Assembly: GCF_000003815.2 (NCBI RefSeq) | Contig: NC_049988.1 | Span: 1,190,309-1,254,308, forward strand | Direction: 5' to 3' | Source: Branchiostoma floridae | Taxonomy: Eukaryota; Chordata; Leptocardii; Amphioxiformes; Branchiostomatidae | DNA: 64,000 nucleotides | Shown: piece after piece, positions 3,018 through 58,954 of the stretch | Layout: each line of letters begins with the position of its first letter | Position numbering within the stretch: the first letter of the stretch is position 1 | Translations under genes and position numbers: made by a program | The notes under the pieces: generated by a model | What the model saw: only the letters and a program-made list of their open reading frames with translations | What the model was told of the DNA's origin: nothing | The model's database searches: none

Positions 3018-4795
3018 TCAAACAACGGATAGTGATGACTTATGACATAACTAGATCCTCAAATGATGTGTTGTTTCTTTACTTCATCATTCTGCTGTAA
3101 GTAGTTTAGTTCATTGCCGACTCCCACTCTCTGCCAGCAAAATGCTAAACTAAAATACCGGTGTTTGACACGAACTTCATTTTCTACATTAACACATTGT
3201 GTGTTTGAGTTGTACACAAGTTGACTGTTGATTTATGGACTGGTGTAGAGCAGGTGCTGGGAGAGGAGAAAAGGAAGACTAAGCCTTAGGACTTATTTTT
3301 ATTTGAGGCCATTCCAGCCATGATAAATACCACAGAAGAATTTCTCTAGTTGATTAAAAGTTTAATTTCTGTAAGAAATCTCAGAGGCAATACATGTATT
3401 TTTACATCTGACTTAGGAATACATGTTCTTTCCCTATTGGGCCATTTGTCCTTAGTCAAATTACATAATCAATGTGAAAGTGTCACAACTATTCTAAGTA
3501 CATGTAGTAAATGATTGGATTGTCAACATTGTGACCTGTGTAACATGTGTACATAACCAGGCATAAATGATGCAGATGTGCAAGTCATTTGCATAATCAG
3601 ACTATTTCATGGAGGTATCAGGTCTCCGAACTCTTGTTGACAACTGTTATGGATGGTTTACACTTCCTTGCATTTGGGACCGCATTGTAAATATTTGGCA
3701 TAAAGCAGACGGTAGATATGTACTAAATACTTTACGATTTGTAACCGCATCTCATGATAGATGGATGGAGTTACTTTGTAGTCAGAGACAAGTAACAAAT
3801 TATGGAAGTAAGATGCCAAAATTAATTGAACATGTATTGTACTGTAGTGATACTGCAAGATGAAGTTCTTTCATGCAGGACGTAGTATATATATCACTGA
3901 TATAGGAAGTGAAAATCAGATACACAAGAACTTACGAAGGTCAAAGTTAATGAAATAGATGTAGCCACGACTAGATCCTAAATGTGATGTAACAGGTTGC
4001 CATTTTGGCTGGTAATGGTCTAATGTTTTATAGGGATTGCAGATTAGATCATTGGTTAGATTGTTGAAAAGGGATTGTACATTATACATGGGCGGTAAAC
4101 AATGTAGTGGACTACATTGTGGAAAGAAATATTTTAACATTTTTTGGCAAGAAACAAGTAGTCAATGTTAACCTGCAATGTAGTGATATTGCATTATACG
4201 TATAGGGTTTACTAAGGTACTATATATTTCTTTTTGGAACTAAAAATATTGTTTTTTTTCCGTACAAAGTAATATAAGTCGGTAATCTTTATTTCGATAG
4301 TACATTATACGTATGGGGAATATATTCTGAATTATATTGTGGAGCAACAAAGTTACTGTCTCTTGTATATCGATAGTTTATTAGTGTTCAGTAGATTAAT
4401 GTGTTATGCATTACATGTATGCCTATGGAGGTATACAAAGCACTGTCCTAAATTTGTTTGAGTGCTGACATAATTGGGATTGTACATTATGGTCGTATGT
4501 AATGTACTGTACTACAGTGTAAAAGAAAGAATGTACCAACTTGTCTATATGAAACAGTAGTTCATTGATATTGAGATGCTCTATGGGTGTAATTCAATAT
4601 TCGTATGAAGTATATATAAAAACTGCATTTTGAAGCGGAGGAGTTACCCATGTGCATACAATATTGGAGATCCTGGATGTTAACATTTTTCTGCTAGTTT
4701 CGTATTCTGTAAGGTTTTTGTATACATGCTTTGTATAATGTATCATAAATTATATCAAATATAAACGTGTCCTTTTCATCATCATGTTGTTTCAA
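3018..4795. other. Non-coding stretch, nothing recognised
   Basis: AT-rich intergenic sequence. Short frames at 3609-3863 (+) and 3916-4140 (-) have no recognisable motif. Several phrases such as TACATTATACGTATGG and ACATTATGGTCGTATG recur loosely between 4070 and 4500, which suggests old low-copy repeats. No RNA gene or clear transposon end was found. Confidence 0.4.
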
Positions 4796-7155
4796 TCTTG
4801 TTCAGGATCAGGGATCTGTGTGGATGCATGTGGATGTGTGATTGTGAATGGTGTACAGCACCTAGGGATAGTGTGTTTACATGTGCGTGGATAGTGTTCT
4901 GCACCAGGGACAGGCGTGTTTACTACGTGTGGATGGTGTTCTGCACCAGGGACAGGTGTGTTTACTACGTGTGGATGGTGTTCTGCACCAGGGACAGGCA
5001 TGTTAACTACGTGTGGATGGTGTTCTGCACCAGGGACAGGTGTGTTTACTACGTGTGGATGGTGTTCTGCACCAGGGACAGGTGTGTTTGAGAATGGATG
5101 GTGGTCAGCACCAAGGACAGGTGTGTTTGTGTGTGGATGGTGGTCAGCATTAATGACAGGTGTGTTTTGTATGGATGTTGTTCATCACAAAAGGCAGATG
5201 TGTTTACTACGTATGGATGGTGTTCTGCACCAGGGACAGGTGTGTTTACTACGTGTGGATGGTGTTCTGCACCAGGGACAGGCATGTTTACTACGTGTGG
5301 ATGGTGTTCTGCACCATACCAGGGACAGGCGTGTTTACCACGTGTGGATGGTGTTCTGCACCAGGGACAGGCATGTTTACTACGTGTGGATTGTGTTCAG
5401 CACCAGGGACAGGCATGTTTACTACGTGTGGATGGTGTTCTGCACCAGCAGGGACAGGTGTGTTTACTACGTGTGGATGGTGTTCAGCACAAGGGACAGG
5501 CGTGTTTACTACGTGTGGATGGTGTTCTGCACCAGGGACAGGTGTGTTTGTGTATGGATGGTACGCAGGACAAAGGACACGTGTTTGTGTGTGGATGGTA
5601 GTCAACACCAAGAACAGGTGTGCTTAATGTGTGGATGGTGTTCAGCACCAAAGGCAGGTGTGTTTACCTGAATGCGAATGGTGTTCAGTACAGTACAAAG
5701 GACAGCTGTATTTAGCGTGGATGGTGTTTAGCGATAGGGAAAGGTTTGTTTGTGCGTTAATGGTGTTCAGCAACAAGTATATGTGTGCTTTACCTGTCTG
5801 TGGATGGTGTTCAGCACAAGGGACAGATATTAGATGTGTTTGTGTGTGAATGGTGCTCAGCACCAGCGACAGGTGTGTTTTTGTGTGGATTTTAGTCAAC
5901 ACCAGGGACAGGTCTGTAAGTCTGTGGATGGTGGTCAGTACCAAAGACAGGTGTGTTTGTGTGTGGATGGTGGTCTGCACCAGGGACAGGTGTGTTTGTG
6001 TATGAATGCTGGTCAGCACCAAGGGCACGTGTGTTTGAGTGTTGCTGGTGTTTAGCACCAGGGACAGGTCTGTTTGTCTGTGGATGGTGGTCAGCACCGA
6101 TGACACTTGTGTTTGTGTGTGGATGGCGGTCAGCACCAAGCACGCGTGTTTGTGTGTGGATGGTGTTCAGCACAAAGGACATGTGTGTCTGTGTTTGGAT
6201 GGTGGTCAACACCAAGGACAGGTGTGTTTATTATGTGGATGGTGTTAGGCACCAATGACAGGTGTGTTTTGTGTGGATGTTCTTCAGCACCAGGGACCGG
6301 TGTGTTTGTGTGTGGATGGTGTTCAGCAACAAGGACGTGGGAGCTTACCTGTGTGCGAATGGTGGTCAGCACCAGGGACAGGTGTATTTGTGTATGGGTG
6401 TTGGTTAGCACCAAGGACAGGTGTGTTTACTGTGTGGATGGTGTTCAGAACCAAGGGCAGGTGTGCTTACCTGAATGCGGATGGTGTTGAGTATCAAGGA
6501 TAGCTGTGTTTTTTGTGGATGGTGTTCAGCGATAGGGAAAGGTGTTTTTGTACGAGAATGGTGTTCAGCACCAAGGACAGGTGTGCTTTACCTGTGTGTG
6601 AATAGTGTTCAGCACTAAGGACAGGTGTGTTTGTTGATTTTGGTCACCATGGACAGGTGTGTTTGGGAAAGGATGGTGGTCAGCACCACGGACACGTGTG
6701 TTTTGTGTTGATGTTCTTCAGCACCAAGGACAGGTGTGTTTTTGTCGATGTTCTTCAGCACCAAGGACAGGTGTGTTTACCTGAATGTGGATGGTGGTCA
6801 GCACCAAGACACGTGTGATTGTGTGTGGATGGTGTTCAGCACAAAGGACATGTGTGTTTGTGTTTGGATGGTGGTCAACACCAAGGACAGGTGTGTTTAC
6901 TGTTTTGACGGTCTTCAGCGCCAAGGGCGCCAAGGACAGCTGTGTCTTGTGTTTATGGTGTTCAAAAAGTACCAATGACATGTGTTTCTGTACTGATGGT
7001 GTTTAGCAGGGACAGGTGTGTTTGGGAAAGGATGTTGTTCAGTACCAGGGACATTTGTGTTTGCATTTAGATACTGTTCAGCATCAGTGACGTATGAACA
7101 TGTGAACAGCATTCAGCACCAGGGACCGCGCGTTTGTTTGCGAGCGTGTGGATGG
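4796..7155. repeat. Minisatellite, 39-45-bp unit, more than 50 copies
   Basis: The unit is essentially GTGTGGATGGTGTTCTGCAC followed by CAGGGACAGGTGTGTTTACT. In 4907-5560 the units are 42 bp and very uniform. From about 5560 to 7155 they are more varied, with a common 39-bp form ending in TTTGTGTGTGG. Because most unit lengths are multiples of three and the unit lacks stops in most frames, long open frames appear on both strands, for example 4916-5671 (+, repeating VFTTCGWCSAPGTG) and 5642-6139 (-, repeating LSLVLTTIHTQTH). I treat these frames as by-products of the repeat. Confidence 0.95.
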
Positions 7156-41821: not shown

Positions 41822-41825
41822 TTAA
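41822..41825. other. Left TTAA target duplication of the 9.5-kb element
   Basis: GCGTCC-TTAA followed by CACTTTATTA. The same TTAA recurs at 51371-51374. Joining the outer flanks gives an intron closely matching 57165-57220. Confidence 0.85.
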
Positions 41826-42117
41826 CACTTTATTAGTCGCAATAAAAAATGGGAAAACCCGGCGGCAATCATGCGGGATCGCCCGGTGACATTGTCCCAT
41901 CTCCCGGCAACGCGGAATTGCTGTCCGTAAGTGCCAGCGGCGGTGTTGGGACCATGCCTCCCCGAAAGATGACCGAGCAAGTTGTGGTGGGTCCCGGGAG
42001 CTAGTGAGTTCATGGGCCGGCGAGAGCTGTGAAACTCCGGCGGCGATTATGCGGGGTCGCCCACCCGATGCTAGCCTTGCAATGTCCGTCACGGGCTCTA
42101 GATCGGGCGGCGAGAGC

Positions 42118-42440
42118 CGTGCTAAGTATGCCTCCAATGTTGGTCGGGCCCGTTGCCGATCAAGACCGCGGAGACACGCCGGCGGGGGCAGTGGCCGGCA
42201 CGCAGAGCAAGGTCGCTCGGTAATGCCCGACAGGCGGACTCGCCGGTAAGGACTCCTCCAATCTTGATCGGGCCCGTTGCCGATCGAGAGCGCGGGGACT
42301 CGCCTGCGGGGGCAGTGGCCGGCACGCCGAGCAAGGCCGCTCGGTAATGCCCGGCAGGCGGGCTCGCTGGCAGAGACTCCTCCAATGTTGGTTGGTGCCG
42401 TTGATGACCGAGAGCTGTGGCGAAACGCATGCTTTAGCGG
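42118..42440. repeat. ~125-bp spacer-like repeat, array 1 (about 2.5 copies)
   Basis: Unit contains CTCCTCCAATGTTGGTCGGG, CCGTTGCCGAYCRAGA, CACGCCGGCGGGGGCAGTGG and CCGCTCGGTAATGCCCGGCA. Same unit as the arrays at 43885 and 46590. Confidence 0.9.
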
Positions 42441-42483
42441 ATGCCCAGGCCTCCAGGCGCCGAGGAGAAGCCCGTAAACTCTC

Positions 42484-43168
42484 CCGGTCGCGTAAGGCAG
42501 GTCCCCGGTCACGTAAGACAGGTCCCAGTGACCGCTTTGGCGGGCCGGGTGTCGGTGCCAAAGGCCGGTTGGCGCCGATCGGGGTCGACCGGGTCGGGTC
42601 CGGACAGCCGGCGGTGATCAGGTCACCAGGCCCCGGCACCCACCCCGTGGAGCATTTTTCAAAAAAGTGCTTTACAGGGTGTCTGACCATGTCGTGGCTC
42701 GCTCAATCTACCTTGAGAGAGTGGTCGTTTTTTGACTAGCTCGGCTTTCCGCGGAGCCTGACGGGTTTCTGCCGGTGGCTGTCGAGTCAGGGATGGATCG
42801 ACAGTGACCGTGGGTGTGCGGGGAACATGCCCACGGAGAGAAAAGTCGGGATGGTCCGGTGACTTTTCCCTCTCCGGCGGTGCCAACGGGCTCTGCACCG
42901 GCCGAGCTGTCAGCCGTGGGCGGGCGGTTTGTGTCTCCGGCTCCAGCCGACTTCGATCGCGGTGGTGGAGTTCCCGGGCCGTCAAGGCACGAGAGAACGA
43001 TGCTGCCGTGTCAGGTAGGTCCATGTGACCGCACTGGCGGACGAAGTAACGGCACACGGGGCCGGAGTGGACCGTACCGGCTCTGACTGTGTTGCAGACA
43101 TGGCGTAATACATTAAGTATTGGCTATGTATTAGCCTCTCTGCGCTGAGGCAAAACCCGTGACCGTCC
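42484..43168. repeat. 685-bp spacer-like unit, copy 1
   Basis: Starts CCGGTCGCGTAAGGCAGG and repeats at 43169 with very few differences. Includes the conserved CAAAAAAGTGCTTTACAGGG block at 42657. Confidence 0.9.
42653..42738 (+). promoter_or_regulatory. Spacer promoter/terminator-like block, copy 1 of 5
   Basis: T-tract TTTTTCAAAAAAGTGC, then TTTACAGGGTGTCTGACCAT, CTTGAGAGAGTGGTCG and TTTTTTGAC. The block recurs at 43338, 44253, 47967 and 48611 in otherwise different surroundings. Reiterated blocks of this kind in rDNA spacers are usually RNA polymerase I promoters or terminators; that role is inferred here. Confidence 0.4.
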
Positions 43169-43815
43169 CCGGTTGCGTAAGGCAGGTCCCCGGTCACGTA
43201 AGGCAGGTCCCAGTGACCGCTTTGGCGGGCCGGGTGTCGGTGCCAAAGGCCGGTTGGCGCCGATCGGGGTCGACCGGGTCGGGTCCGGACAGCCGGCGGT
43301 GATCAGGTCACCAGGCCCCGGCACCCACCCCGTGGAGCATTTTTCAAAAAAGTGCTTTACAGGGTGTCTGACCATGTCGTGGCTCGCTCAATCTACCTTG
43401 AGAGAGTGGTCGTTTTTTGACTAGCTCGGCTTTCCGCGGAGCCTGACGGGTTTCTGCCGGTGGCTGTCGAGTCCGGGATGGATCGACAGTGACCTTGGAT
43501 GTGCGGGGAACACGCCCACGGAGAGAAAAGTCGGGATGGTCCGGTGACTTTTCCCTCTCCGGCGGTGCCAACGGGCTCTGCACCGGCCGAGCTGTCAGCC
43601 GTGGGCGGGCGGTTTGTGTCTCCGGCTCCAGCCGACTTCGATCGCGGTGGTGGAGTTCCCGGGCCGTCAAGGCACGAGAGAACGATGCTGCCGTGTCAGG
43701 TAGGTCCATGTGACCGCACTGGCGGACGAAGTAACGGCACACGGGGCCGGAGTGGACTGTACCGGCCCTGATCGTGTTGCAGGCATGGCGTAATGCATTA
43801 AGTATTGGCTATGTA
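43169..43815. repeat. 685-bp spacer-like unit, copy 2
   Basis: Near-identical to copy 1; ends at about 43815 where GTAACCGAGACGGG begins unrelated sequence. Confidence 0.9.
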
Positions 43816-43884
43816 ACCGAGACGGGCCTGCTTGGCCGGCGGGGGACTTTTAACCCGGCACCCGAGGCCCACCCCTCTCGGTGG

Positions 43885-44180
43885 GGCTCGCCGGCAAGAA
43901 CTCCTCCAATGTTGGTCGGGCCCGTTGCCGATCAAGACCGCGGAGACACGCCGGCGGGGGCAGTGGCCGGCACGCCGAGCAAGGTCGCTCGGTAATGCCC
44001 GGCAGGCGGACTCGCCGGTAAGGACTCCTCCAATCTTGATCGGGCCCGTTGCCGACCGAGAGTGCGGGGCCTCGCCTGCGGGGGTAGTGGCCGGCACGCC
44101 GAGCAAGGCCGCTCGGTAATGCCCTGCAGGCTGGCTCGCTGGCAGAAACTCCTCCAATGTTGGTTGGTGCCGTTGATGAC
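43885..44180. repeat. ~125-bp spacer-like repeat, array 2 (about 2.5 copies)
   Basis: Very close to array 1, including the junction to GTTGGTTGGTGCCGTTGATG. The stretch 42118-44180 therefore looks like one larger unit duplicated. Confidence 0.9.
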
Positions 44181-44252
44181 CGAGAGCCGGGTCGGGTCCG
44201 GACAGCCGGCGGTGATCAGGTCACCAGGCCCCGACACCCACCCCGTGGAGCG

Positions 44253-44337
44253 TTTTTCAAAAAGGGCTCTACAGGGTGTCTGACCATGTCGTGGCTCGCT
44301 CAATCTATCTTGAGAGAGTGGTCGTTTTTTGACTGGC
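44253..44337 (+). promoter_or_regulatory. Spacer promoter-like block, copy 3, just upstream of the 18S leader
   Basis: CAAAAAGGGCTCTACAGGGT, then GTCTGACCATGTCGTGGC and CTTGAGAGAGTGGTCG. This is the copy nearest the 18S fragment, so it is the candidate pre-rRNA promoter or the terminator preceding it. Confidence 0.4.
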
Positions 44338-45316
44338 TCGGGAAACGGCAGCGAGTGGCGAGTGATCGCACACTCTCTCGCCAGTCGTTTTGCTGCCCCG
44401 CCGACCAGGCTGCCACTCCCAGCGAGGGCAGCCGGAGGTCGACATCCTACTTGTCGGCGGTTTCCATAAGTAGCACCTCGGACACTTCCTCCGCGGAGGC
44501 TGAGTCTGGGTCCACCGCCATTTCTACCTGCGTGCGAGCAAGCGTTGCCAAACAGTGTCTAATTGTGGCACACTTCGTTTTTGAGACAGGAGAGGTGAAG
44601 TGATACAGCCTGCATTCTTAGCCGCAAGACAAGTTCTTGTTGTCGTTGAGCAAGAACGTGAGCTCGTGGTATGGAGCGGGCGGTCCGCCCGCACCGAACC
44701 ACTCTTGGAACGTAGTCGGGCCCGTAAAAAGCGCGGGCCCCACGTTCGGGCGCCTTGAGTGCGCGCCCGTCGTTCCTACTTGCCTTTATGAGGCGCCAGT
44801 CGTTTTGCTACCCACTCCCCGCGAGGGCAGCCGGAGGTCGACAACCGGCTAGGAAGGCGGCCGTTCCTCCGTTCCTGCGGGCGAGGACGGCCGTGCCGAG
44901 GGCGTCCGGAAGCAGCGCCGGGGCCGGCCTCCGCGGAGGCAGCGCCCGGGTCAACCAGGGACCCAAACGGCGACGGCTCGCCCCTTCCGTCTGCGTGCGA
45001 GTACGCCTTGCGGTCTTGGCAGTTCGAGACCCGGCCGTCCGTCTGCTCGGCAGACGCGTCGGTCGTGAGAGTGCGGGACCGTTCCCTCGCGGGGACGGCT
45101 CGGGCGTTGAAGGGAAGCAACGATCAGGTGTGGTCGGGAGTTCTGCGCTCAGGCTCCCGTGGGTTTGCGGCACCGCTGCGCATTCCCAATTTACTGTAGC
45201 TACGGACTTTGGCGGTGGCGGTTCTCGGGTGCTTGGCGCGGTCCCGGTCGAGACGCCTAGAGCGTCTCCCGGAGCGACTGTGACGCCCGCCCGCCTTGCC
45301 ACCAGGGCGTCCTCGC
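44338..45316 (+). other. Probable 5' external transcribed spacer
   Basis: About 1 kb of GC-rich sequence directly upstream of the 18S 5' end. It contains a diverged internal duplication (CCAGTCGTTTTGCT..GAGGGCAGCCGGAGGTCGAC at 44380 and 44800). Assigned by position only. Confidence 0.55.
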
Positions 45317-45530
45317 TACCTGGTTGATCCTGCCAGTGGTCATATGCTTGTCTCAAAGATTAAGCCATGCACGTGCAAGTTCAACTGTCCCAGTGAAACT
45401 GCGAATGGCTCAGTAAATCAGTTATGGTTCCTTTGATCGTCACATCCTACATGGATAACTGTGGTAATTCTAGAGCTAATACATGCGGAAGAAGCGCCGA
45501 CCTCACGGTTTGGCGTGCATTTATTTATTT
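45317..45530 (+). rRNA. 18S rRNA, 5' fragment (about 210 nt), decayed
   Basis: Begins TACCTGGTTGATCCTGCCAG, the canonical 5' end of eukaryotic small-subunit rRNA. It continues through CATATGCTTGTCTCAAAGAT, TAAGCCATGCACG, GTGAAACTGCGAATGGCTCA, TAAATCAGTTATGGTTC, GATAACTGTGGTAATTCTAG and AGCTAATACATGCGG to GCGTGCATTTATT. Several otherwise invariant positions differ (for example CAGTGGTCATATG for CAGTAGTCATATG, and GGCTCAGTAAATC for GGCTCATTAAATC), so it is not under rRNA selection. After an ATTT tandem run the sequence leaves 18S. Confidence 0.9.
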
Positions 45531-46589
45531 ATTTATTTATTTGCACACCTCGTGGCAAGGAGCGGGCGGTGCCCCTGGCCTCCCGCCCCGACCCACTCTT
45601 CCTTACCGCCTCGACAAGGTGGCGCTCCGACGGTGCTCTCGCGTCAATCGCTTGTCGTCCGTCTTAAGACGACGTCGAGCGCGGGCGGAGAGTCAGGAGC
45701 GCCCAGGCCGACCCGCTCGGTGGCGGGACCCGGCAGCTCCCTTGGAACGTTGGTCGGGGGCCTTCATTGAGCGCCCGTCGTTCCCCAGACTCAATCAGCG
45801 AGCCGCTCCGAGTAGCCTGGTCGAGGACGGAGTTAGGTCCTCCCGGCGAAAAGTTTAGGGCGGGCGAGCGAAAATGGGAGCACCTATATCCTGGCGGAGG
45901 GGCGACGCGTCGCGGGTTTGCGCGGAATGGGGTCACGGTTTAGTCTCACGGCGGGGCCTAGGTGAGACGGCTCTTCCCCGGCACCCCGGCGTGGCGTTTC
46001 AGTCTCTGACTCAATGCAATCGGTCTTGCGGACGAGTGGCCTAACCTTAAGCGTCGGACTTCGAGCGGGCGTCCCGCGGTCCAAGGCCTCCTTTGGGCAG
46101 AGGGGAGGACTGCTGTCTCGGTCCCGCCGGCTAGCCACCGGCGGTCTCGACCGGATGCTACACTCCCCGAGGTCTTAAAGAGAAGGGCGGGCGTCACCGT
46201 CCCCTCTGCGTCTAACCGGGTCCGGCCGGCCGGCAGGGATGCTCAGGGGGCGTGAGGCGGTCTTCGCAGCGGGTCCCGGTTCGCGGAGCGACCCCCAGCC
46301 CTTCCGCTCGTTTGCGCCCTTCACCACGAAGGGCACCTTCCACGTCTCGGAAACGATAGTGCCGAACGACAGGCTTTCTATGTGTTCAGCTTCCTGGCGG
46401 AGACGCTCTCCCCGGTAGAGACTGTGCTCTGTAGAATGTCTTCCCTGCGAGCCCGTGTCACGGGTGTCCAAGGGGGCACCCCTCGATACTGGGGTGTCTC
46501 CGCCGATTAGAAGATCGGAGGGACTACAGGGTTACGCGGGCCGGGCCTGTTGAAGACCAGACGTTCGGCGGGGGCGGTGACCGGCGCCC
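45531..46589 (+). other. GC-rich cargo of unknown origin after the 18S fragment
   Basis: Starts with (ATTT)n and CACACCTCGTGGCAAGGAGC, then about 1 kb of rRNA-like GC-rich sequence. I cannot match it to 5.8S, 28S or the rest of 18S. It could be spacer, a diverged rRNA expansion segment or transposon-specific sequence. Open frames here are caused by base composition. Confidence 0.4.
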
Positions 46590-47900
46590 CGAGCTCGCCG
46601 CTCGGTAATGCCCGGCAGGCGGGCTCGCCGGCTAAGACTCCTCCAATGTTGGTCGGGCCCGTTGCCGACCAAGACCGCGGGGGCACGCCGGTGGCGGCAG
46701 TGGCCGGAACGCCGAGCAAGGCCGCTCGGTAATACACGGCAGGCGGGCTCGCCGGCAAGAACTCCTCCGATGCTGATCGGGCCCGTTGCCGACCAAGACC
46801 GAGGGGACACGCCGGCGGAGGCCGGGCGGGTGCCCCCAGCAACCCTGCTCGGTAATACCCGGCAGGCGTTCCTCGCCGGCAAGAACTCCTCCAATGTTGA
46901 TCGGGCCCGTTGTCGACCAAGACCGCGGGCGCACGCCGGCCGGGGCAGTGGCCGGCGCCCCGAGCAGGGCCGCTCGGTAATGCCCGGCAGGCGTGCTCGC
47001 CGGCAAGAACTCCTGCAATGTTGATCGGGCCCGTTGCCGACCAAGCCTGAGGAGACACGCCGGCGGGGGCAGTGGCCGGCACGCCGATCAAGGCCGCTCG
47101 GTAATACCCGGCAGGCGTTCCTCGCCGGTAAGGACTCCTCCCTTGTTCGTCGGGCCCGTTGCCGACGGAGAGCCCGGGGGCACGCCGGCGGGGGCAGTGG
47201 CCGGCACGCTGAGCAAGGCCGCTCGGTAATGCCCGGCAGGCGGGCTCGCCGGTAAGGACTCCTCCAATGTTGGTCGGGCCCGTTGCCGACCAAGACCTCG
47301 GAGACACGCCGGCGGGGGCAGTGGCCGGCACGCCGAGCAAGGCCGCTCGGTAATACCCGGCAGGCGTTCCTCGCCGGTAAGGACTCCTCCAATGTTGGTC
47401 GGGCCCGTTGTCGACCAAGACCGCGGGCGCACGCCGGCGGGGGCAGTGGCCGGCACGCCGAGCAAGGCCGCTCGGTAATGCCCGGTAGGCGGGCTCGCCG
47501 GCAAGAACTCCTCCAATGTTCGTCGGGCCCGAGGCCGACGGAGAGCCCGGGGGTACGCCGGCGGGGGCAGTGGCCGGCACGCTGAGCAAGGCCGCTCGGT
47601 AATACCCGGCAGGCGTTCCTCGCCGGTAAGGACTCCTCCGATGTTGGTCGGGCCCGTTGCCGACCAAGACCTCGGAGACACGCCGACCCTGGCAGTGGCC
47701 GGCACGCCGAGCAAGGCCGCTCGGTAATGCCCGGTAGGCGGGCTCGCCGGCAAGAACTCCTCCAATGTTCGTCGGGCCCGAGGCCGACGGAGAGCCCGGG
47801 GGTACGCCGGCGGGGGCAGTGGCCGGCACGCTGAGCAAGGCCGCTCGGTAATGCCCGGCAGGCGGGCTCGCCGGTAAAGACTCCTCCGATCTTGGTCGGG
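46590..47900. repeat. ~125-bp spacer-like repeat, array 3 (about 10-11 copies)
   Basis: The GCTCGGTAATRCCCGGCAGG phrase recurs near 46598, 46722, 46846, 46970, 47097, 47220, 47347, 47470, 47597, 47722 and 47846 (spacing 123-127 bp). Some neighbouring pairs form a higher-order ~250-bp dimer (alternating GGCAGGCGTTCCTCGC and GGCAGGCGGGCTCGC). Long minus-strand frames (46507-47838, 46532-48007) arise because the unit is GC-rich with few stops. Confidence 0.92.
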
Positions 47901-48670
47901 GTCGACCGGGTCGGGTCCGGATAGCCAGCGGTGATCAGGTCACCAGGCTCCGGCACCCACCCCGTGAAGCGTTTTTCAAAAAAGTGCTTTACAGGGTGTC
48001 TGACCATGTTGTAGGTCGCTCAATCTACATTGAGAGAGTGGACGCTTTTTGACCTGTTCGGAGTCAGCCAGCCTTCCGCGGACCCTGACGGGTTTCTGCC
48101 GATGGCTGGCCAGTCCGGGACTGGTCGACAGGGACCGTGGCTGAGCGGGCAAGATTTCCGCACGGTGAAAAGACGGGCTTGCCCGGTGACTTTTCCCTGT
48201 TTGGCGGGTCCAACGGGCTTTGCACCGGGCAGCGGTGAAGCCTTGGGCGGGCGGTGTGTGACCTTTGCACCGCCCGACTGCAATCGTGTCAGAGGAAGCC
48301 CCGGGCTGGCCATGCGAGCGAGCACGATGCGGCGGTGGCAGGAAGGTCCCGCCGAGCCTCGAGGTGACGCCAAGGCACGGTTCCTTTGTACAGGCCTTGT
48401 TACATCGGATGCATGACCGGATGTCGGCCATAAGGGTGACCGTCAGCTCACGGCGGCGGAACGAGGTCGGCGGCGGTTGGAGGCGCCTCTCGCCGCCGAT
48501 GACTACCTCGTAGCGGGCGCCGTGTCCACCACATGCGGGCGCAGCGCGCTTTTTTCGGCCTAAGTTCGGCCTCCCGGTGCCGAGACCAAGCCCGAGACCG
48601 TGTCTCGGTGGTTTTTCAAAAAAGTGCTCTACTGGGTGTCTGACCATGTCGTGGGTCGCTCTGCCTACCT
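47901..48670. repeat. Diverged third copy of the 685-bp spacer-like unit
   Basis: Shares GGTCGACCGGGTCGGGTCCG, the block at 47967, TTCCGCGGACCCTGACGGGT, TGACTTTTCCCT and CTTTGCACCGGGCAGC with copies 1 and 2 but is much more diverged, then ends in a fifth, truncated promoter-like block at 48611. Confidence 0.75.
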
Positions 48671-48880
48671 AGGTAGCGCGTAGTCCAGTGGTTAGCGGCC
48701 TTGCCTCTGGAACTAGAAGCCGTGGGTTCGATCCCGGCTGTGTCGTTCACCCGACATGCACGCTACCGGAAAGGGTTGCAGTCCTTAGGACAGGACGTTA
48801 AGCCGTGGTCCATTGTTCATGGTAGGGCGATTGATCTGTGAGCTGTTGTGGGATGTTGATTTGATTGCTCACGGACCAAT
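48671..48880 (+). mobile_element. tRNA-derived SINE inside the piggyBac element
   Basis: GGTAGCGCGTAGTCCAGTGG (A box) and CCGTGGGTTCGATCCCGGC (B box) with an anticodon-arm-like GCCTCTGGAACTAGAAG between. A tRNA-sized head of about 75 nt is followed by a non-tRNA body (CACGCTACCGGAAAGGG, CCTTAGGACAGGACGTTAAG). It breaks the fifth spacer block and lies about 30-240 bp upstream of the transposase start. Its 3' limit is approximate. Confidence 0.75.
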
Positions 48881-48910
48881 AAGGAGGGGAATGTTCGTAT
48901 GTTTTAGGAG

Positions 48911-50857
48911 ATGGCAAGCGGGGACGACGAAGAGATAGAGGAGGACATTGAAATGTATCTCTGGGAAGCAGCGGTGGCTGAGAGAGCCGAGGCGGCCGGG
49001 GCGAATGGAGCTGTTGGGCAGAATATCGCTGGGGAGGTCGACAGCGACGACAGCGACGATTTTGACTTGTATTCCGTCACGAAGCAGGTCAGAGGTGCCC
49101 GAGTCGGGGAGTTTTCACGACGGAACAAAGCGAGGGGTCGAGCTGAACGGCCGTGGGCATCCGTCAGTGCCGGTGAGGTTCATCCGTACAAGCCCCAGAA
49201 ATTCAGGGCACCCGGGCCCGTCGGCCCGAGGCGAGCCGAGGACAACCGGAATGAACTGTCTTTCTTTCTGGAGGTGTTGGACCAGTATCTTATCCGGTAT
49301 ATCGTGCGTTGCACCAATAGGTACGCCCGGCAGAGGCGAAGGGTATTCCGCAAAGAAAGGCGCTCGCGTTGGTCACCCACCTCGACCACCGAGCTGAAAG
49401 CCTTTTTGGGCTGCATGATATGCGCCGGCTACACGTACCAACCGAGACTCGATTTGTACTGGTCTGATGACGATGACGTTGGGTGTACGCTGATGAAAAG
49501 GACTTTTCCTTCTCATCGTTTTCGTCAAATCTTGCGGTACCTTCACTACTCCCCCGAAGGGTTCTGTCCTCCTGGCAGCGAGCGTCTGAAGAGTTTTAAA
49601 GCAAGGGAGAAGTTGGACCGAGTTATGAAGGTACGCAGAGTTATGGAGAGGGTCAGTCGGAATAGTTGCCGTGCCCGCCATGTCGGCGAGCATCTCGTAG
49701 TTGACGAAGCGACAGTAGCGTTTAGGGGAAGGCACAGTCTTCGGCGCTACAACCCTTCGAAGCCGACAAAGTATGGATACTGTCTCCGAGCTCTGGCTGA
49801 GACAGACGGCTACATATTGTCCGACGAAGTGTGTGGAGGGCGTGCGGACCCAGAGGACATGTCGCCGGACGAAAGATGCATGCACGGCATTGGTGACGAA
49901 TATGTCAGCCCTCTTGATCTGAAGCCCGCCCGAGTCGTCAATAGACTGACGATGCCATTTCAGGGATGCTACCGCACCGTTTATTGCGATTCCTACTACA
50001 CAGGAGTCCAACTGGCAGATTACCTTTTCACCAAAGACACTTACATTGTGGGGACGGTGAGACGAAATGCGTCAGGCCTACCGACGGAAGGGCATCCCGT
50101 TCCACGCAAACCTAGGCCTGGGCCAGGCAGGCCGCCATTGCTGAAGTTCCCAGACCCCTATCCTAAGAGTGTACCGAGAGGCACTTCTGTCCGGTACCAC
50201 GACGGGCCGGTAACGGTTGTGAAATGGCAAGACACCAAATCGCTCATACTGCTTTCTACGGGAACTAGTGTCTGTGCTCCCGACGAACTAACCACCAGGC
50301 GATGCAAGGGTCCCAGTGGTGCTACCCGACTAGAGGTGACATGTCCTGCAGCGATGAACATGTACAATCTCCACTACAAGGCGGTGGACACAGCCGACCA
50401 GCTCCGGGCAGGGTACGAATTCGGTCGGCCTTCGAAGAAATGGCACAGGCAAATCTTCTGGTACGCCATGAACAAAGCTGTGGTGAACGCCTTCTTGAAC
50501 TGGAAGATATACACTGCTGGCAGACAGGATCTCCCAGCACATAGGGTTGCCCAGCTGAGCTTTCGACGGGCGTTAGTGCGGCAGCTAATCGGCAATTTCT
50601 CCGCAAGGCACCGAACACCCACTGCGAGCGTGGCCCTGCCAGGAGTCATCAGCAACCACCGGCAGATAAGCCAAGGGAAACCCACTAAAGCCTGTCGTTA
50701 CTGCGCAAAAGCTGGCCGTCATATGCCACGAGCGAAACGGTGCAGACCGTTCGAGACTGTCTACAAATGCGAGATGTGCAACGTGTCCGTATGCCACGTC
50801 AGTTTGCGCCCCGAGTGTTGGCGTGAGCACTTGCAGGACATGCAGGGCGATGCATAG
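48911..50857 (+). CDS. PiggyBac-family DDE transposase, full length
   Basis: 648 residues, no internal stop. The first 60 are acidic (DDEEIEEDIEMY, DSDDSDDFDLY), as is usual for the family. The DDE_Tnp_1_7 catalytic core follows. Its three aspartates can be placed at D265 (HLVVDEATVAFRGR), D360 (VYCDSYYTGVQLADYL) and D493 (AVDTADQLRAGYEF), with GTVRRNASGLP after the second and KKWHRQIFWYAMNKAVVNAF after the third. The C-terminal 55 residues form a cysteine-rich zinc-binding domain (CRYCAKAG, CEMCNVSVCHV, CWREH) that in this family binds the terminal repeats. The enzyme excises and inserts DNA at TTAA, which agrees with the flanks of the element. Length, catalytic residues and an uninterrupted frame suggest it could be active. 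The start is the first ATG after TTTTAGGAG; an intronless gene. Confidence 0.95.
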   Translation: MASGDDEEIEEDIEMYLWEAAVAERAEAAGANGAVGQNIAGEVDSDDSDDFDLYSVTKQVRGARVGEFSRRNKARGRAERPWASVSAGEVHPYKPQKFRAPGPVGPRRAEDNRNELSFFLEVLDQYLIRYIVRCTNRYARQRRRVFRKERRSRWSPTSTTELKAFLGCMICAGYTYQPRLDLYWSDDDDVGCTLMKRTFPSHRFRQILRYLHYSPEGFCPPGSERLKSFKAREKLDRVMKVRRVMERVSRNSCRARHVGEHLVVDEATVAFRGRHSLRRYNPSKPTKYGYCLRALAETDGYILSDEVCGGRADPEDMSPDERCMHGIGDEYVSPLDLKPARVVNRLTMPFQGCYRTVYCDSYYTGVQLADYLFTKDTYIVGTVRRNASGLPTEGHPVPRKPRPGPGRPPLLKFPDPYPKSVPRGTSVRYHDGPVTVVKWQDTKSLILLSTGTSVCAPDELTTRRCKGPSGATRLEVTCPAAMNMYNLHYKAVDTADQLRAGYEFGRPSKKWHRQIFWYAMNKAVVNAFLNWKIYTAGRQDLPAHRVAQLSFRRALVRQLIGNFSARHRTPTASVALPGVISNHRQISQGKPTKACRYCAKAGRHMPRAKRCRPFETVYKCEMCNVSVCHVSLRPECWREHLQDMQGDA

Positions 50858-50864
50858 ATGGTTT

Positions 50865-51345
50865 AGGATCGAGGAAAGTGTGTTGCAAGACCGGCCAAAT
50901 GTTGTAAAGTTACTGGGAGAAGATGCGATTCTGTCCGGTGGCAACTTTGTGTCTAACCGGCAACTACCGATAATCCGACTTGTAAAGTTTTAGGACTAAG
51001 GAAAATGTGTTGCAAGACCGGCCAAAGGTTGTAAAGTTACTGGGAGAAGATGCGATTATGTCCGGTGGAAACTTTGTGTCTAACCGGCAACTACCGATAA
51101 TCCGACATGTAAAGTTATAGGACTAAAGAAAATGTGTTGCAAGACCGGCCAAAGGTTGTAAAGTTACTGGGAGAAGATGCGATTATGTCCGGTGGAAACT
51201 TTGTGTCTAACCGGCAACTACCGATAATCCGACTTGTAAAGTTATAGGACTAAAGAAAATGTGTTGCAAGACCGGCCAACGGTTGTAAAGTTACTGGGAG
51301 AAGATGCGATTCTGTCCGATGGCAACTTTGTGTCTAACCGACAAA
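50865..51345. repeat. 127-bp subterminal tandem repeat, four copies
   Basis: TGTTGCAAGACCGGCC recurs at 50881, 51008, 51135 and 51262, exactly 127 bp apart. Units share GTAAAGTTACTGGGAGAAGA and TAACCGGCAACTACCGATAA. They lie between the transposase stop and the right inverted repeat, where transposase-binding sites would be expected. Confidence 0.92.
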
Positions 51346-51370
51346 TACCGATACTCTGCGTAATAAAGTG

Positions 51371-51374
51371 TTAA
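51371..51374. other. Right TTAA target duplication of the 9.5-kb element
   Basis: GTAATAAAGTG-TTAA-CGTTGTTAGTATTGAG; intron sequence resumes immediately. Confidence 0.85.
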
Positions 51375-56606: not shown

Positions 56607-56735
56607 CTGTTGGAGAAAGAACAATAAATAGAGCTTTTTGGCGAGTAGTTAAAACCTAAAACCAAATCGGGGATCTGTAAGTACCCTAATTATTATCTGT
56701 GTCTATTTGGTAGAAAGGCGATTTGTTTGGTTTAC

Positions 56736-56849
56736 CGTTGTCACAATGCAGACCTTCCCACCCATCCCCGCATTCACACGTGTAGCTATTCGCTTCATCA
56801 TGACACGTGGCACCGTTCTGACATGGATTGGATGAACACTCATTGGTGT
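56736..56849 (-). CDS. EGF exon 12 (EANSY subtype)
   Basis: [20 protein letters not shown], ends [13 protein letters not shown]. Protein identical to exon 19 at 40443. Confidence 0.88.
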
Positions 56850-57266
56850 CTGTACAAAAGAGCAAAAGTAATTATCATTTTACGTGGAACAAAAATGTTA
56901 ACAGGATTGTAACTTTATCATTGAATAATAAAATGGTGAATGATAAACTTTATCATTGTCTATGCAATGATAGGAGTTTTATTAAATGTTGAAGGTTTTT
57001 TTCTTTGAATATTCAATACAAATAATACAAAATGAATCTTAAAAGGGACGTATAATAACATACATATTTTGGAAGCATAAAGTGCAAAAACAAATAATTT
57101 GTTTACAATTGTTCTTCCAATCATTTACATTGTCGTAGCTGTAACTGTTACAGCAGTTACAAAAATTCGTCTTTAACGTATTTAATAATGAGTTCTTTGT
57201 TATATTACAACCGTGCCAGTTTATTTTCTAGCTATTTTAATATTTAAAGGCATTTTCATTATTTAC
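56850..57266 (-). other. Intron that preserves the empty insertion site
   Basis: 57165-57225 (AATTCGTCTTTAACGTATTT, AATAATGAGTTCTTTG) is homologous to the sequence on both sides of the 9.5-kb element and contains a single TTAA. It is therefore an unoccupied version of that target. Confidence 0.75.
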
Positions 57267-57380
57267 CGATGTCACAATGAGTGCCCTCCCAGCCAGCCAC
57301 ACATGCACACGTGTAGCTGTTTAGTTCGTCATGACACGTGGCACCGTTCTGACATGGGTCAGAGGAACACTCATCGGTGT
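57267..57380 (-). CDS. EGF exon 11
   Basis: [16 protein letters not shown], ends [13 protein letters not shown]; protein identical to exon 24 at 38807. Confidence 0.88.
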
Positions 57381-57557
57381 CTGTATAGGAGAGAGAACAA
57401 TAAATAGAGATATAACATTAACATATTCAGTGCATTATCTTTGCATATGAAATTAGAGGGTAAAAATGTACCAGACAATGTTAAGTTATTTCAAAGAATA
57501 TAAGTTTTCCAACATCTTCAGAATACAACACGAATTAGCTAAAAGACTGTCATTTAC

Positions 57558-58050: not shown

Positions 58051-58189
58051 CTATACGAAACAGAACCACAAATAGAGATACAATATGCTTTATGGCGAGT
58101 AGTTCAAACATGAAACTTAAACGGGGATATGCAAGTACCCTAATTATTATCTGTGTCTATTTGGTAGAAAGGCGATTTGTTTGGTTTAC

Positions 58190-58303
58190 CGTTGTCACAA
58201 TGTTGACCCTCCCACCCATCCCCGCATTCACAGGTGTAGCTATTCGCTTCATCCTGACAGGTGGCACCGTTCTGACATGGATTGGATGAACACTCATTGG
58301 TGT
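58190..58303 (-). CDS. EGF exon 8 (EANSY subtype)
   Basis: [20 protein letters not shown], ends [13 protein letters not shown]. The residue after the third Cys is Q rather than H. Confidence 0.88.
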
Positions 58304-58664
58304 CTGTACAAAAGAGATCATTCTACGCGTGACGAAAATGTCTATAGGATTGTAACTGTAATCTTTGTCTATGCAAGGATCTTATTAAATGTTAAAAGTT
58401 TTTTCTTGGAATATTCAATCAAACTAATAGAAAACTAATTTTGAATAGGACTTATGATAACATACATATTTTGGAAGAAGATATTGCCAAACAAAAAAAT
58501 GTCAATTACAATTGTTCTTCCTTCCATTCACGCAGTCGTAAAAGTAACAGCAATTACAACAATTCGTACTTAAGGTTGTTGATATTGAATTGTTTGTTAC
58601 GTCATATAACTGTGCCAGTTTATTTTCTAGTAATTTGAATATAAAAGGTATTTTCATTATTCAC

Positions 58665-58778
58665 CGATGTCACAATGAGCTCCCTCCCAGCCAGCCACAC
58701 ATGCACACGTGTAGCTGTTCAGTCCGTCATGACATGTGGCATTGTTGTTACATGGGTTAGAGGAACAATCGTTGGTGT
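58665..58778 (-). CDS. EGF exon 7
   Basis: [16 protein letters not shown], ends [17 protein letters not shown] supplies a possible N-glycosylation site next to the O-fucose threonine. Donor GTGAAT. Confidence 0.87.
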
Positions 58779-58954
58779 CTGTAGTACAGAGACCAGTAAA
58801 TAGAGATAAACATGTAAACATATTCGGTGTATTATATTGGCATACGAACGTTTAGTAGAATCTTGTACCGGAAATTATAAGACCATTTTTAAAGAATAAC
58901 GATTTCTCAATATCTTCTGTATTCAACGTAAAGTAGCTAAACACTGCTATTTAC

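What the first reader, a model, noticed from the sequence alone, without database searches (positions are those of the whole stretch)
41826..51370. A 9.5-kb piggyBac-type transposon that carries host ribosomal DNA and spacer
Seen: TTAA on both sides, inverted ends CACTTTATTA, an uninterrupted DDE transposase, and between them the true 5' end of 18S rRNA, its leader, spacer-like repeat arrays and five copies of one promoter-like block. Known: piggyBac elements cut at TTAA, and Daphnia Pokey (piggyBac, rDNA-resident) carries rDNA spacer repeats (recalled, not searched). Inferred: an amphioxus element took up rDNA, perhaps while residing in rDNA, and has spread outside it. Carrying rDNA homology could help it recombine into rDNA or use Pol I transcription. 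An rDNA-laden piggyBac in a chordate would be new to me.
Basis: partly seen in the sequence, partly recalled or inferred. Interest (0 to 1): 0.92.

Follow-up and report, generated by a model that had tools for sequence, protein, structure and literature searches.

The report
Jumping gene carrying ribosomal RNA genes
In what looks like an amphioxus genome, a cut-and-paste jumping gene of the piggyBac kind carries part of the host's ribosomal RNA gene unit with it, some other copies carry a whole (though decayed) 18S gene, and a piece of what is probably the rRNA promoter sits just in front of the transposase gene in two distantly related families of the element.

Summary
Window 41826-51370 is a complete piggyBac-superfamily element: TTAA on both sides, 10-bp inverted ends, an intact 648-aa DDE transposase, and paralogous empty sites in the window. 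It is not a chimera: this family (E1) lies at 8 places (5 distinct insertion sites); 6 of the 8 carry 18S sequence. The window copy keeps only the first 210 nt of 18S because of an internal deletion. The gap-free 11,252-bp copy on contig C2 carries promoter, 5' ETS, full-length 18S and ITS1. That 18S is decayed and diverges from the host type about as fast as ITS1: cargo, not a working gene. A second, distant family (E2; transposase 62% aa identity, dS saturated), at three other sites, has the same order: spacer, promoter, ETS, 18S, ITS1, assembly gap, promoter piece, transposase. In both families the 5' half of the promoter block ends at the same base shortly before the transposase. Best reading: a piggyBac lineage with an old promoter-transposase fusion that repeatedly takes up or refreshes host rDNA; it works like Daphnia Pokey but carries much more. 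Residence in rDNA and Pol I transcription are inferred; 28S is not in the assembly.

The parts
41822..41825 (.). TTAA target duplication, left
   Evidence: single TTAA in paralogous empty sites
41826..41835 (+). left terminal inverted repeat CACTTTATTA
42131..42415 (+). 124-bp tandem repeats, first array
42663..42744 (+). rRNA-promoter-like block, copy 1
   Evidence: matched by the host-type promoter region
43348..43429 (+). rRNA-promoter-like block, copy 2 (inside a ~685-bp duplication)
43887..44187 (+). 124-bp tandem repeats, second array
44260..44341 (+). rRNA-promoter-like block, copy 3, the one upstream of ETS and 18S
44342..45316 (+). 5' external transcribed spacer, 10.5% diverged from host-type C13; includes ~360 bp (about 44454-44811) without match in the host-type ETS
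45317..45527 (+). 18S rRNA gene, first ~210 nt only
   Evidence: sub-threshold Rfam SSU hit at 45418-45544
45527..45543 (+). junction of the internal deletion (18S to ITS1) filled with TTTA repeats
45544..46365 (+). ITS1 (the match ends at 46365 where the host-type sequence held runs into a gap)
46566..47900 (+). 124-bp tandem repeats, third array (10.8 copies)
47980..48061 (+). rRNA-promoter-like block, copy 4, followed by spacer-like sequence
48573..48670 (+). 5' half of the promoter block plus ~45 bp upstream, 240 bp before the transposase ATG; same 3' end in family E2
48676..48810 (+). tRNA-like/SINE-like stretch (by eye only); ARAGORN finds no tRNA, and among the loci searched only another E1 copy matched
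48911..50857 (+). piggyBac-superfamily transposase, 648 aa, intact
50874..51353 (+). 127-bp subterminal repeats, 3.8 copies
51361..51370 (-). right terminal inverted repeat
51371..51374 (.). TTAA target duplication, right

Best explanation
SHOWN: an autonomous-looking piggyBac-superfamily element (E1) carries host-like rDNA (promoter block, 5' ETS, 18S, ITS1) between its ends and sits at five distinct sites, at TTAA wherever a flank was read except CTAA on the left of the C2 copy. SHOWN: a distant relative (E2) has the same order of parts at three other sites, with an assembly gap in its middle. SHOWN: the 18S in the E1 copies read in full is decayed cargo. SHOWN: both families have the 5' half of the block that lies upstream of host-type 18S shortly before the transposase, ending at the same base. 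INFERRED: the block is the rRNA promoter; the ancestor stood in the rDNA array just behind such a promoter and came to use a left end beyond the preceding rDNA unit, so that one unit travels inside; the promoter piece was kept because it drives or regulates the transposase; the rDNA cargo was taken up anew, or refreshed by recombination with the array, at different times (about 7% divergence ago in E1, about 1% in E2) and then decays.
For: Eight E1 places, five distinct sites by flank; 18S at 6 of 8. C2 copy gap-free, 11,252 bp, full 18S of 1,758 nt at 1457.5 Rfam bits. Paralogous empty sites. Four of four full-length E1 transposase ORFs intact (window, C2, C183, second C192 copy), the three others 6-12 nt from the window copy. 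E2: common left ends on C10, C9, C15 and right ends, TTAA/TTAA on C15 and TTAT/TTAT on C10. Cargo ages: E1 C2 copy to host-type ETS 10.1% (C13), 18S 6.8% and ITS1 6.9% (C1); E2 C10 copy 2.6%, 0.8%, 0.7%. E1-E2 transposase dN 0.32, dS 2.73 against 7-12% for the cargo: the cargo is far younger than the split, or was homogenised. Promoter-transposase junction: the host query matched up to nt 104 in seven E1 copies and up to nt 103 in E2 C10; apart from the coding region, this ~85 bp (84%) is the only stretch just before the transposase that aligns between E1 (C2) and E2 (C10).
Against: No copy is seen inside an rDNA unit; the assembly has no 28S core, so residence in rDNA is untested. No transcript data. 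E1 cargo is 7% off the host type, so it is not being homogenised now, unlike Pokey. Among six diverged relatives scanned (L008, L011, L013, L014, L015, L019) none gave a promoter-block hit at up to 38 mismatches; the three read just upstream of the transposase lack it (L008, L011 on C363) or, by eye, keep a remnant (L015). They may be dead, but this weakens a strict requirement. The E2 transposase junction is readable in C10 only (gaps in C9 and C15). In E2 C10 a 7,292-N gap lies between ITS1 and transposase, so contiguity rests on matching target duplications in two copies and like spacing in three; the C9 right junction is irregular. Differences between E1 transposase copies are mostly amino-acid changing (1-2 silent against 4-11 changed codons per pair), so intactness is by recency, not visible selection. 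ITS1 of E1 copies differs by 1.8-4.6% although ETS and 18S differ by about 0.4-0.6%, which I cannot explain. The 124-bp arrays were not tied to host spacer. The host-type reference is the 18S shared by C1, C13 and C14, not a proven array unit.
Confidence: 0.7

Rival explanations
1. Assembly chimera: rDNA reads were joined by mistake to transposon copies.
For: rDNA is prone to misassembly; the 28S core is missing altogether and several related loci have gaps.
Against: Window and C2 copies have no N inside; rDNA lies in E1 at all five distinct sites; the E1 18S of C2 and C15 share 177 columns that differ from both C1 and E2, so it is not host rDNA misplaced.
Confidence: 0.03
2. Pure passenger: the rDNA was picked up by chance and neither the promoter piece nor the cargo does anything; the promoter piece looks conserved only because host rDNA occasionally converts it.
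For: 18S drifts like ITS1 in both families; relatives on C363 lack the block; the window copy lost most of its 18S and is otherwise complete; the C3 copy lost ETS, 18S and ITS1.
Against: The same promoter piece with the same 3' end stands before the transposase in two families whose silent sites are saturated, while the sequence around it does not align.
Confidence: 0.35
3. One ancient uptake before the E1/E2 split, with the cargo kept similar by exchange with the host rDNA (concerted evolution, as reported for Pokey IGS repeats), rather than separate uptakes. It can hold together with the main reading.
For: Same order of parts in both families; the shared promoter-transposase junction; Pokey precedent (PMC3849761, passages read).
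Against: E1 is 7% off the host type and the two copies compared share their decay, so exchange has not reached E1 for long; the left ends of E1 and E2 are alike only in their first few bases.
Confidence: 0.35
4. The E2 loci are not elements but ordinary rDNA fragments that happened to be hit by a transposon.
For: The middle of each E2 copy is a gap.
Against: Three chromosomes share the same left and right end points with different flanks, and target duplications match across the gap on C15 (TTAA) and C10 (TTAT).
Confidence: 0.05

Closest known systems
Pokey (Daphnia, piggyBac superfamily; PMC3849761, passages read)
   Same: piggyBac superfamily; rDNA-derived sequence upstream of the transposase in two divergent families of one genome; the rDNA part far less diverged between families than the transposase (Pokey 5.3% among A repeats against nearly 40%; here 7-12% against saturated silent sites); TTAA with occasional TTAT and CTAA targets; copies outside rDNA.
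   Different: Pokey carries ~200-bp IGS repeats and a ~50-bp ITS2 piece. Here promoter, 5' ETS, whole 18S and ITS1 are carried and a promoter piece lies shortly before the transposase. The fourth acidic residue is D (N in Pokey) and the transposase ORF is uninterrupted (Pokey has a 68-84 bp intron). Insertion in 28S is not testable here.
piggyBac / piggyBat type transposons
   Same: DDE_Tnp_1_7 domain, DDD residues, TTAA, short inverted ends, Cys-rich C terminus.
   Different: Ordinary members carry no rRNA gene sequence (recalled).
R-elements (R1, R2) in 28S (as background in PMC3849761; details recalled)
   Same: Association of a mobile element with rDNA.
   Different: Those are non-LTR retrotransposons without rDNA cargo; this is a DNA transposon at dispersed sites.
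DNA transposons targeting multicopy small RNA genes (PMC3706591; listing and start of abstract only)
   Same: DNA transposons tied to multicopy RNA genes.
   Different: There the tie is by target site; whether they carry RNA gene sequence was not read. Not compared by sequence.

Membership tests
piggyBac superfamily | DDE_Tnp_1_7 transposase domain | tested here: met
   PF13843 E=1.8e-64 (E1) and 3.6e-68 (E2); piggyBat chain E=1.2e-24
piggyBac superfamily | DDD catalytic residues | tested here: met
   VDEATV, YCDSYY and AVDTAD align to D-bearing words of piggyBat; D265, D360 and D493 by the positions (that these are the catalytic ones is recalled)
piggyBac superfamily | TTAA target duplication and short inverted ends | tested here: met
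   paralogous empty sites with one TTAA. Exceptions: C2 copy has CTAA on the left; E2 has TTAT on C10 and an irregular C9 copy
piggyBac superfamily | Cys-rich C-terminal domain | tested here: inconclusive
   paired Cys seen by eye in the C terminus printed; no domain model matched there
piggyBac superfamily | footprint-free excision | not testable with these tools
   needs an excision assay
Pokey | N in place of the fourth acidic residue | tested here: not met
   D in E1 (VDTADQ) and E2 (VDLADQ), taking the second D of this word as the fourth residue (placement recalled); Pokey residue from PMC3849761
Pokey | small intron in the transposase gene | tested here: not met
   uninterrupted ORF in E1 and E2
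Pokey | rDNA-derived sequence upstream of the transposase | tested here: met
   (different and larger rDNA parts)
Pokey | insertion at one TTAA site in 28S | not testable with these tools
   28S core absent from the assembly, 0 matches with up to 2 mismatches
Pokey | transposase phylogeny within the Pokey clade | not tested
   no Pokey protein sequence was at hand

The most novel reading that the evidence does not exclude
The lineage has turned the host's rRNA promoter into the promoter of its own transposase gene (a protein-coding gene driven from a Pol I-type promoter or tied to nucleolar activity), and E2 moves a whole rRNA transcription unit that is renewed from the array, so that this transposon can seed new rDNA loci.
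Probability: 0.2. Interest if true: 0.95.

Novelty: new variant of a known kind. Interest (0 to 1): 0.77.

Why it matters
[quoted passage not shown] A chordate lineage that carries promoter, ETS, entire 18S and ITS1, in two old families with cargo of different ages, suggests that the tie between piggyBac elements and rDNA is recurrent rather than a Daphnia oddity. It gives a concrete route by which rDNA pieces scatter over chromosomes, warns that 18S and ITS1 hits in such genomes can be transposon cargo, and makes two questions directly testable: whether the transposase is made from an rRNA promoter, and whether cargo homology lets an element trade sequence with the rDNA array.

Tried and rejected
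Assembly chimera: rejected for E1. Functional 18S inside E1: rejected for the two copies read in full; C2 copy 119 substitutions and 68 gap columns against C1, with two large deletions shared by both. Functional constraint on E2 18S: not supported; 14 of 1,816 differ (0.8%) against 6 of 809 in ITS1 (0.7%) on C10, and the C15 copy of E2 lacks about 21 nt of 18S; by eye two or three of the 14 changes keep a V2 helix paired. 5.8S or 28S remains in E1: none in the window element at E up to 0.1 or in C2 copy positions 6100-9901 of L047 at E up to 1. 124-bp arrays as host spacer: no match in nine loci tried. tRNA gene before the transposase: none. Literature searches: listings and starts of abstracts only, plus passages of PMC3849761; nothing listed described an amphioxus piggyBac with rDNA. 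This covers only the open-licence papers held.

Full report
What is there. The window lies in a 513-Mb assembly of 431 contigs. Amphioxus is inferred from nine mir-2060 matches (that this family is of amphioxus is recalled) and from genome size; no call named the species. At 41826-51370 stands a complete element of the piggyBac superfamily: TTAA on both sides, ends CACTTTATTA and TAATAAAGTG, an intact 648-aa transposase at 48911-50857 with the DDE_Tnp_1_7 domain, and piggyBat as nearest solved relative. The surroundings are tandem paralogous units; the two flanks joined run straight through two paralogues at 56700-57413 and 58154-58808, each with one TTAA at the join. The insertion is therefore precise. 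GC is 0.65 left of the transposase and 0.36 in the flanks.

Other copies of the same family (E1). DNA searches of the assembly with transposase, 18S piece, left end and right end (counts are lower bounds) show close copies at 8 places: C10 (window), C2, C15, C183, C192 twice, C193 and C3; more diverged relatives (89% and less, for example C217, C363, C9, C14) are not counted. Flanks reduce the 8 to five sites: C3, C193 and one C192 copy share a left flank (for C192 only the nearest ~55 bp), and C183 and the other C192 copy share a right flank. The left flank is TTAA at four of five sites and CTAA at C2; the right flank is TTAA at the four sites where it was read. E1-type 18S is found at 6 of 8 places. 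The C3 copy lost ETS, 18S and ITS1 by a join between 124-bp arrays, and its match ends inside the transposase. For the second C192 copy no 18S match was returned and its left part was not read. The other five copies with 18S continue past nt 210, where the window copy has an internal deletion into ITS1. The C2 copy is 11,252 bp without a gap and holds a full-length 18S (1,758 nt, 1457.5 bits against Rfam RF01960). The C15 copy also has it, with 761 N in its transposase. Four of four full-length transposase genes are intact; C183, C192 and C2 differ from the window copy by 6, 8 and 12 nt. Most of these changes alter the protein (1-2 silent against 4-11 changed codons per pair), so the copies are intact because they are young. 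ITS1, however, differs by 1.8-4.6% between E1 copies while ETS and 18S differ by 0.4-0.6%; I have no explanation.

The cargo against host rDNA. The assembly has no 28S core (0 matches with up to 2 mismatches), so the true arrays seem not to be in it. The best host-type reference is the 18S of C1 and C13 (no mismatch over 1,775 nt, 41-nt deletion in C13), with C14 partial. The C2 copy of E1 differs by 10.1% in ETS (C13), 6.8% in 18S and 6.9% in ITS1 (C1): 18S has drifted like ITS1, so it has been an unselected passenger since uptake. C2 and C15 share 177 columns that differ from both C1 and E2, and differ from each other at 7, so the decayed cargo has been inherited inside the element.

A second family (E2). 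Near-host 18S at C10:3032495, C9:5036132 and C15:1657839 each lies 9.5-10.9 kb upstream of a second transposase. In the C10 copy, the one read, the protein is intact (629 aa), PF13843 E=3.6e-68, 62% identical to E1 over 601 aa; E1-E2 dN 0.32, dS 2.73. The three loci share left ends (CTCTTTGGCAG) and right ends (GGTAAAGAG) with different flanks: TTAA/TTAA on C15, TTAT/TTAT on C10; C9 has CTAA on the left and an unexplained 10 extra bases on the right. A search with the left 629 bp finds these three complete and no other complete copy. The order inside is spacer with 585-bp and 132-bp repeats, promoter block, ETS, 18S, ITS1, an assembly gap (7,292 N on C10), promoter half, transposase. The C10 18S is full length, 1732 bits, and differs from C1 at 14 of 1,816 positions, 13 of them transitions; the C15 copy lacks about 21 nt and C9 was readable over 863 nt. 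ITS1 differs at 6 of 809 (C10) and ETS at 2.6% on C10 and 4.7% on C9 and C15. Here too 18S drifts no slower than ITS1, though the numbers are small.

The promoter. An 82-bp block stands about 660 bp upstream of 18S in host-type C13 and C14 and in E2, with a variant (a spacer promoter by its place) further upstream. That it is the rRNA promoter is inferred from position and repetition. In the window it occurs at 42663, 43348, 44260 and 47980 in full, and as its 5' half at 48620. A genome search with the host block returned 40 scored matches of 50 candidates; all 40 lie in host-type rDNA, E1, E2 or one C4 relic. The half copy before the transposase matches the host query up to nt 104 in seven E1 copies and up to nt 103 in E2 C10; C9 and C15 have gaps there. 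Just before the transposase E1 and E2 do not otherwise align; the piece itself is 84% identical over 85 bp, and 87-90% to the host promoter. A shared junction in front of genes with saturated silent sites points to an old fusion kept by selection, or refreshed by conversion. Against a strict need: none of six diverged relatives scanned gave a block hit; of the three read just upstream of the transposase two lack it and one has a remnant by eye.

Mechanism. The order of parts reads like a slice of tandem rDNA from one spacer through 18S and ITS1 to the next unit's promoter, behind which the transposase stands. The simplest history (inferred) is an ancestor standing just behind an rRNA promoter in the array which later moved with a left end beyond the preceding unit. 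In E1 no 5.8S or 28S remains were found; in E2 they could fill the gap, which is untested. Cargo of 7% (E1) and about 1% (E2) against a transposase split with saturated silent sites means repeated uptake or refreshment. The likely role of the promoter piece is transposase expression (inferred). The window copy, complete but for most of its 18S, shows that the 18S is not needed for a copy to be present with intact ends and transposase.

Against the known. Pokey of Daphnia (PMC3849761; passages read) is the close parallel: two families, IGS repeats upstream of the transposase, repeats 5.3% diverged against nearly 40% for the transposase, targets TTAA 88%, TTAT 5.9%, ATAA 5.1%, CTAA 0.85%. The present families work like it but fail two Pokey markers (N at the fourth acidic residue; intron), and residence in 28S could not be tested; I do not file them as Pokey. 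Carriage of promoter, ETS, full 18S and ITS1 goes beyond what those passages describe. Paper searches (listings and starts of abstracts) showed nothing on such an element in amphioxus; Repbase and closed journals were not searchable.

Noticed in passing
window 4832-6902: Nine matches to Rfam mir-2060 within 2.1 kb, which look like units of a repeat; the family may be a minisatellite rather than a microRNA gene. A similar-looking sequence was seen by eye beside the C13 rDNA.
   Followed up: no
L018 about 3380-3420 and L071 1942 (C9 copy of E2): Right junction has 10 extra bases and an 11-bp flank duplication instead of a plain 4-bp target duplication.
   Followed up: partly
L034, L035, L036 (C4) and L010 (C14:3042373): Diverged loci with promoter-block, ETS and (on C4) 18S pieces, sharing a further segment with each other; L010 also has a transposase C-terminal piece. 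Perhaps relics of older rDNA-carrying families.
   Followed up: partly
C363 (27 kb), L008, L011, L014, L019, L020: Several diverged transposase fragments of this lineage crowded on one small contig with gaps.
   Followed up: no
L031 position 942 (C1): Host-type rDNA on C1 starts abruptly inside the ETS next to unrelated sequence; the break might mark a transcription start or a retro-copy.
   Followed up: no
C3 against C192 and C193 copies of E1: Same left flank, but the C3 copy lacks the ETS-18S-ITS1 cargo; perhaps alleles, one after a deletion between 124-bp arrays.
   Followed up: partly
window 45544-46420 against L047 and L050/L051: ITS1 of E1 copies differs by 1.8-4.6% although their ETS and 18S differ by only 0.4-0.6%.
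   Followed up: no
window 48676-48810: tRNA-like, SINE-like stretch between the promoter half and the transposase ATG in E1 (by eye; no tRNA called; no match in the rest of the window).
   Followed up: partly
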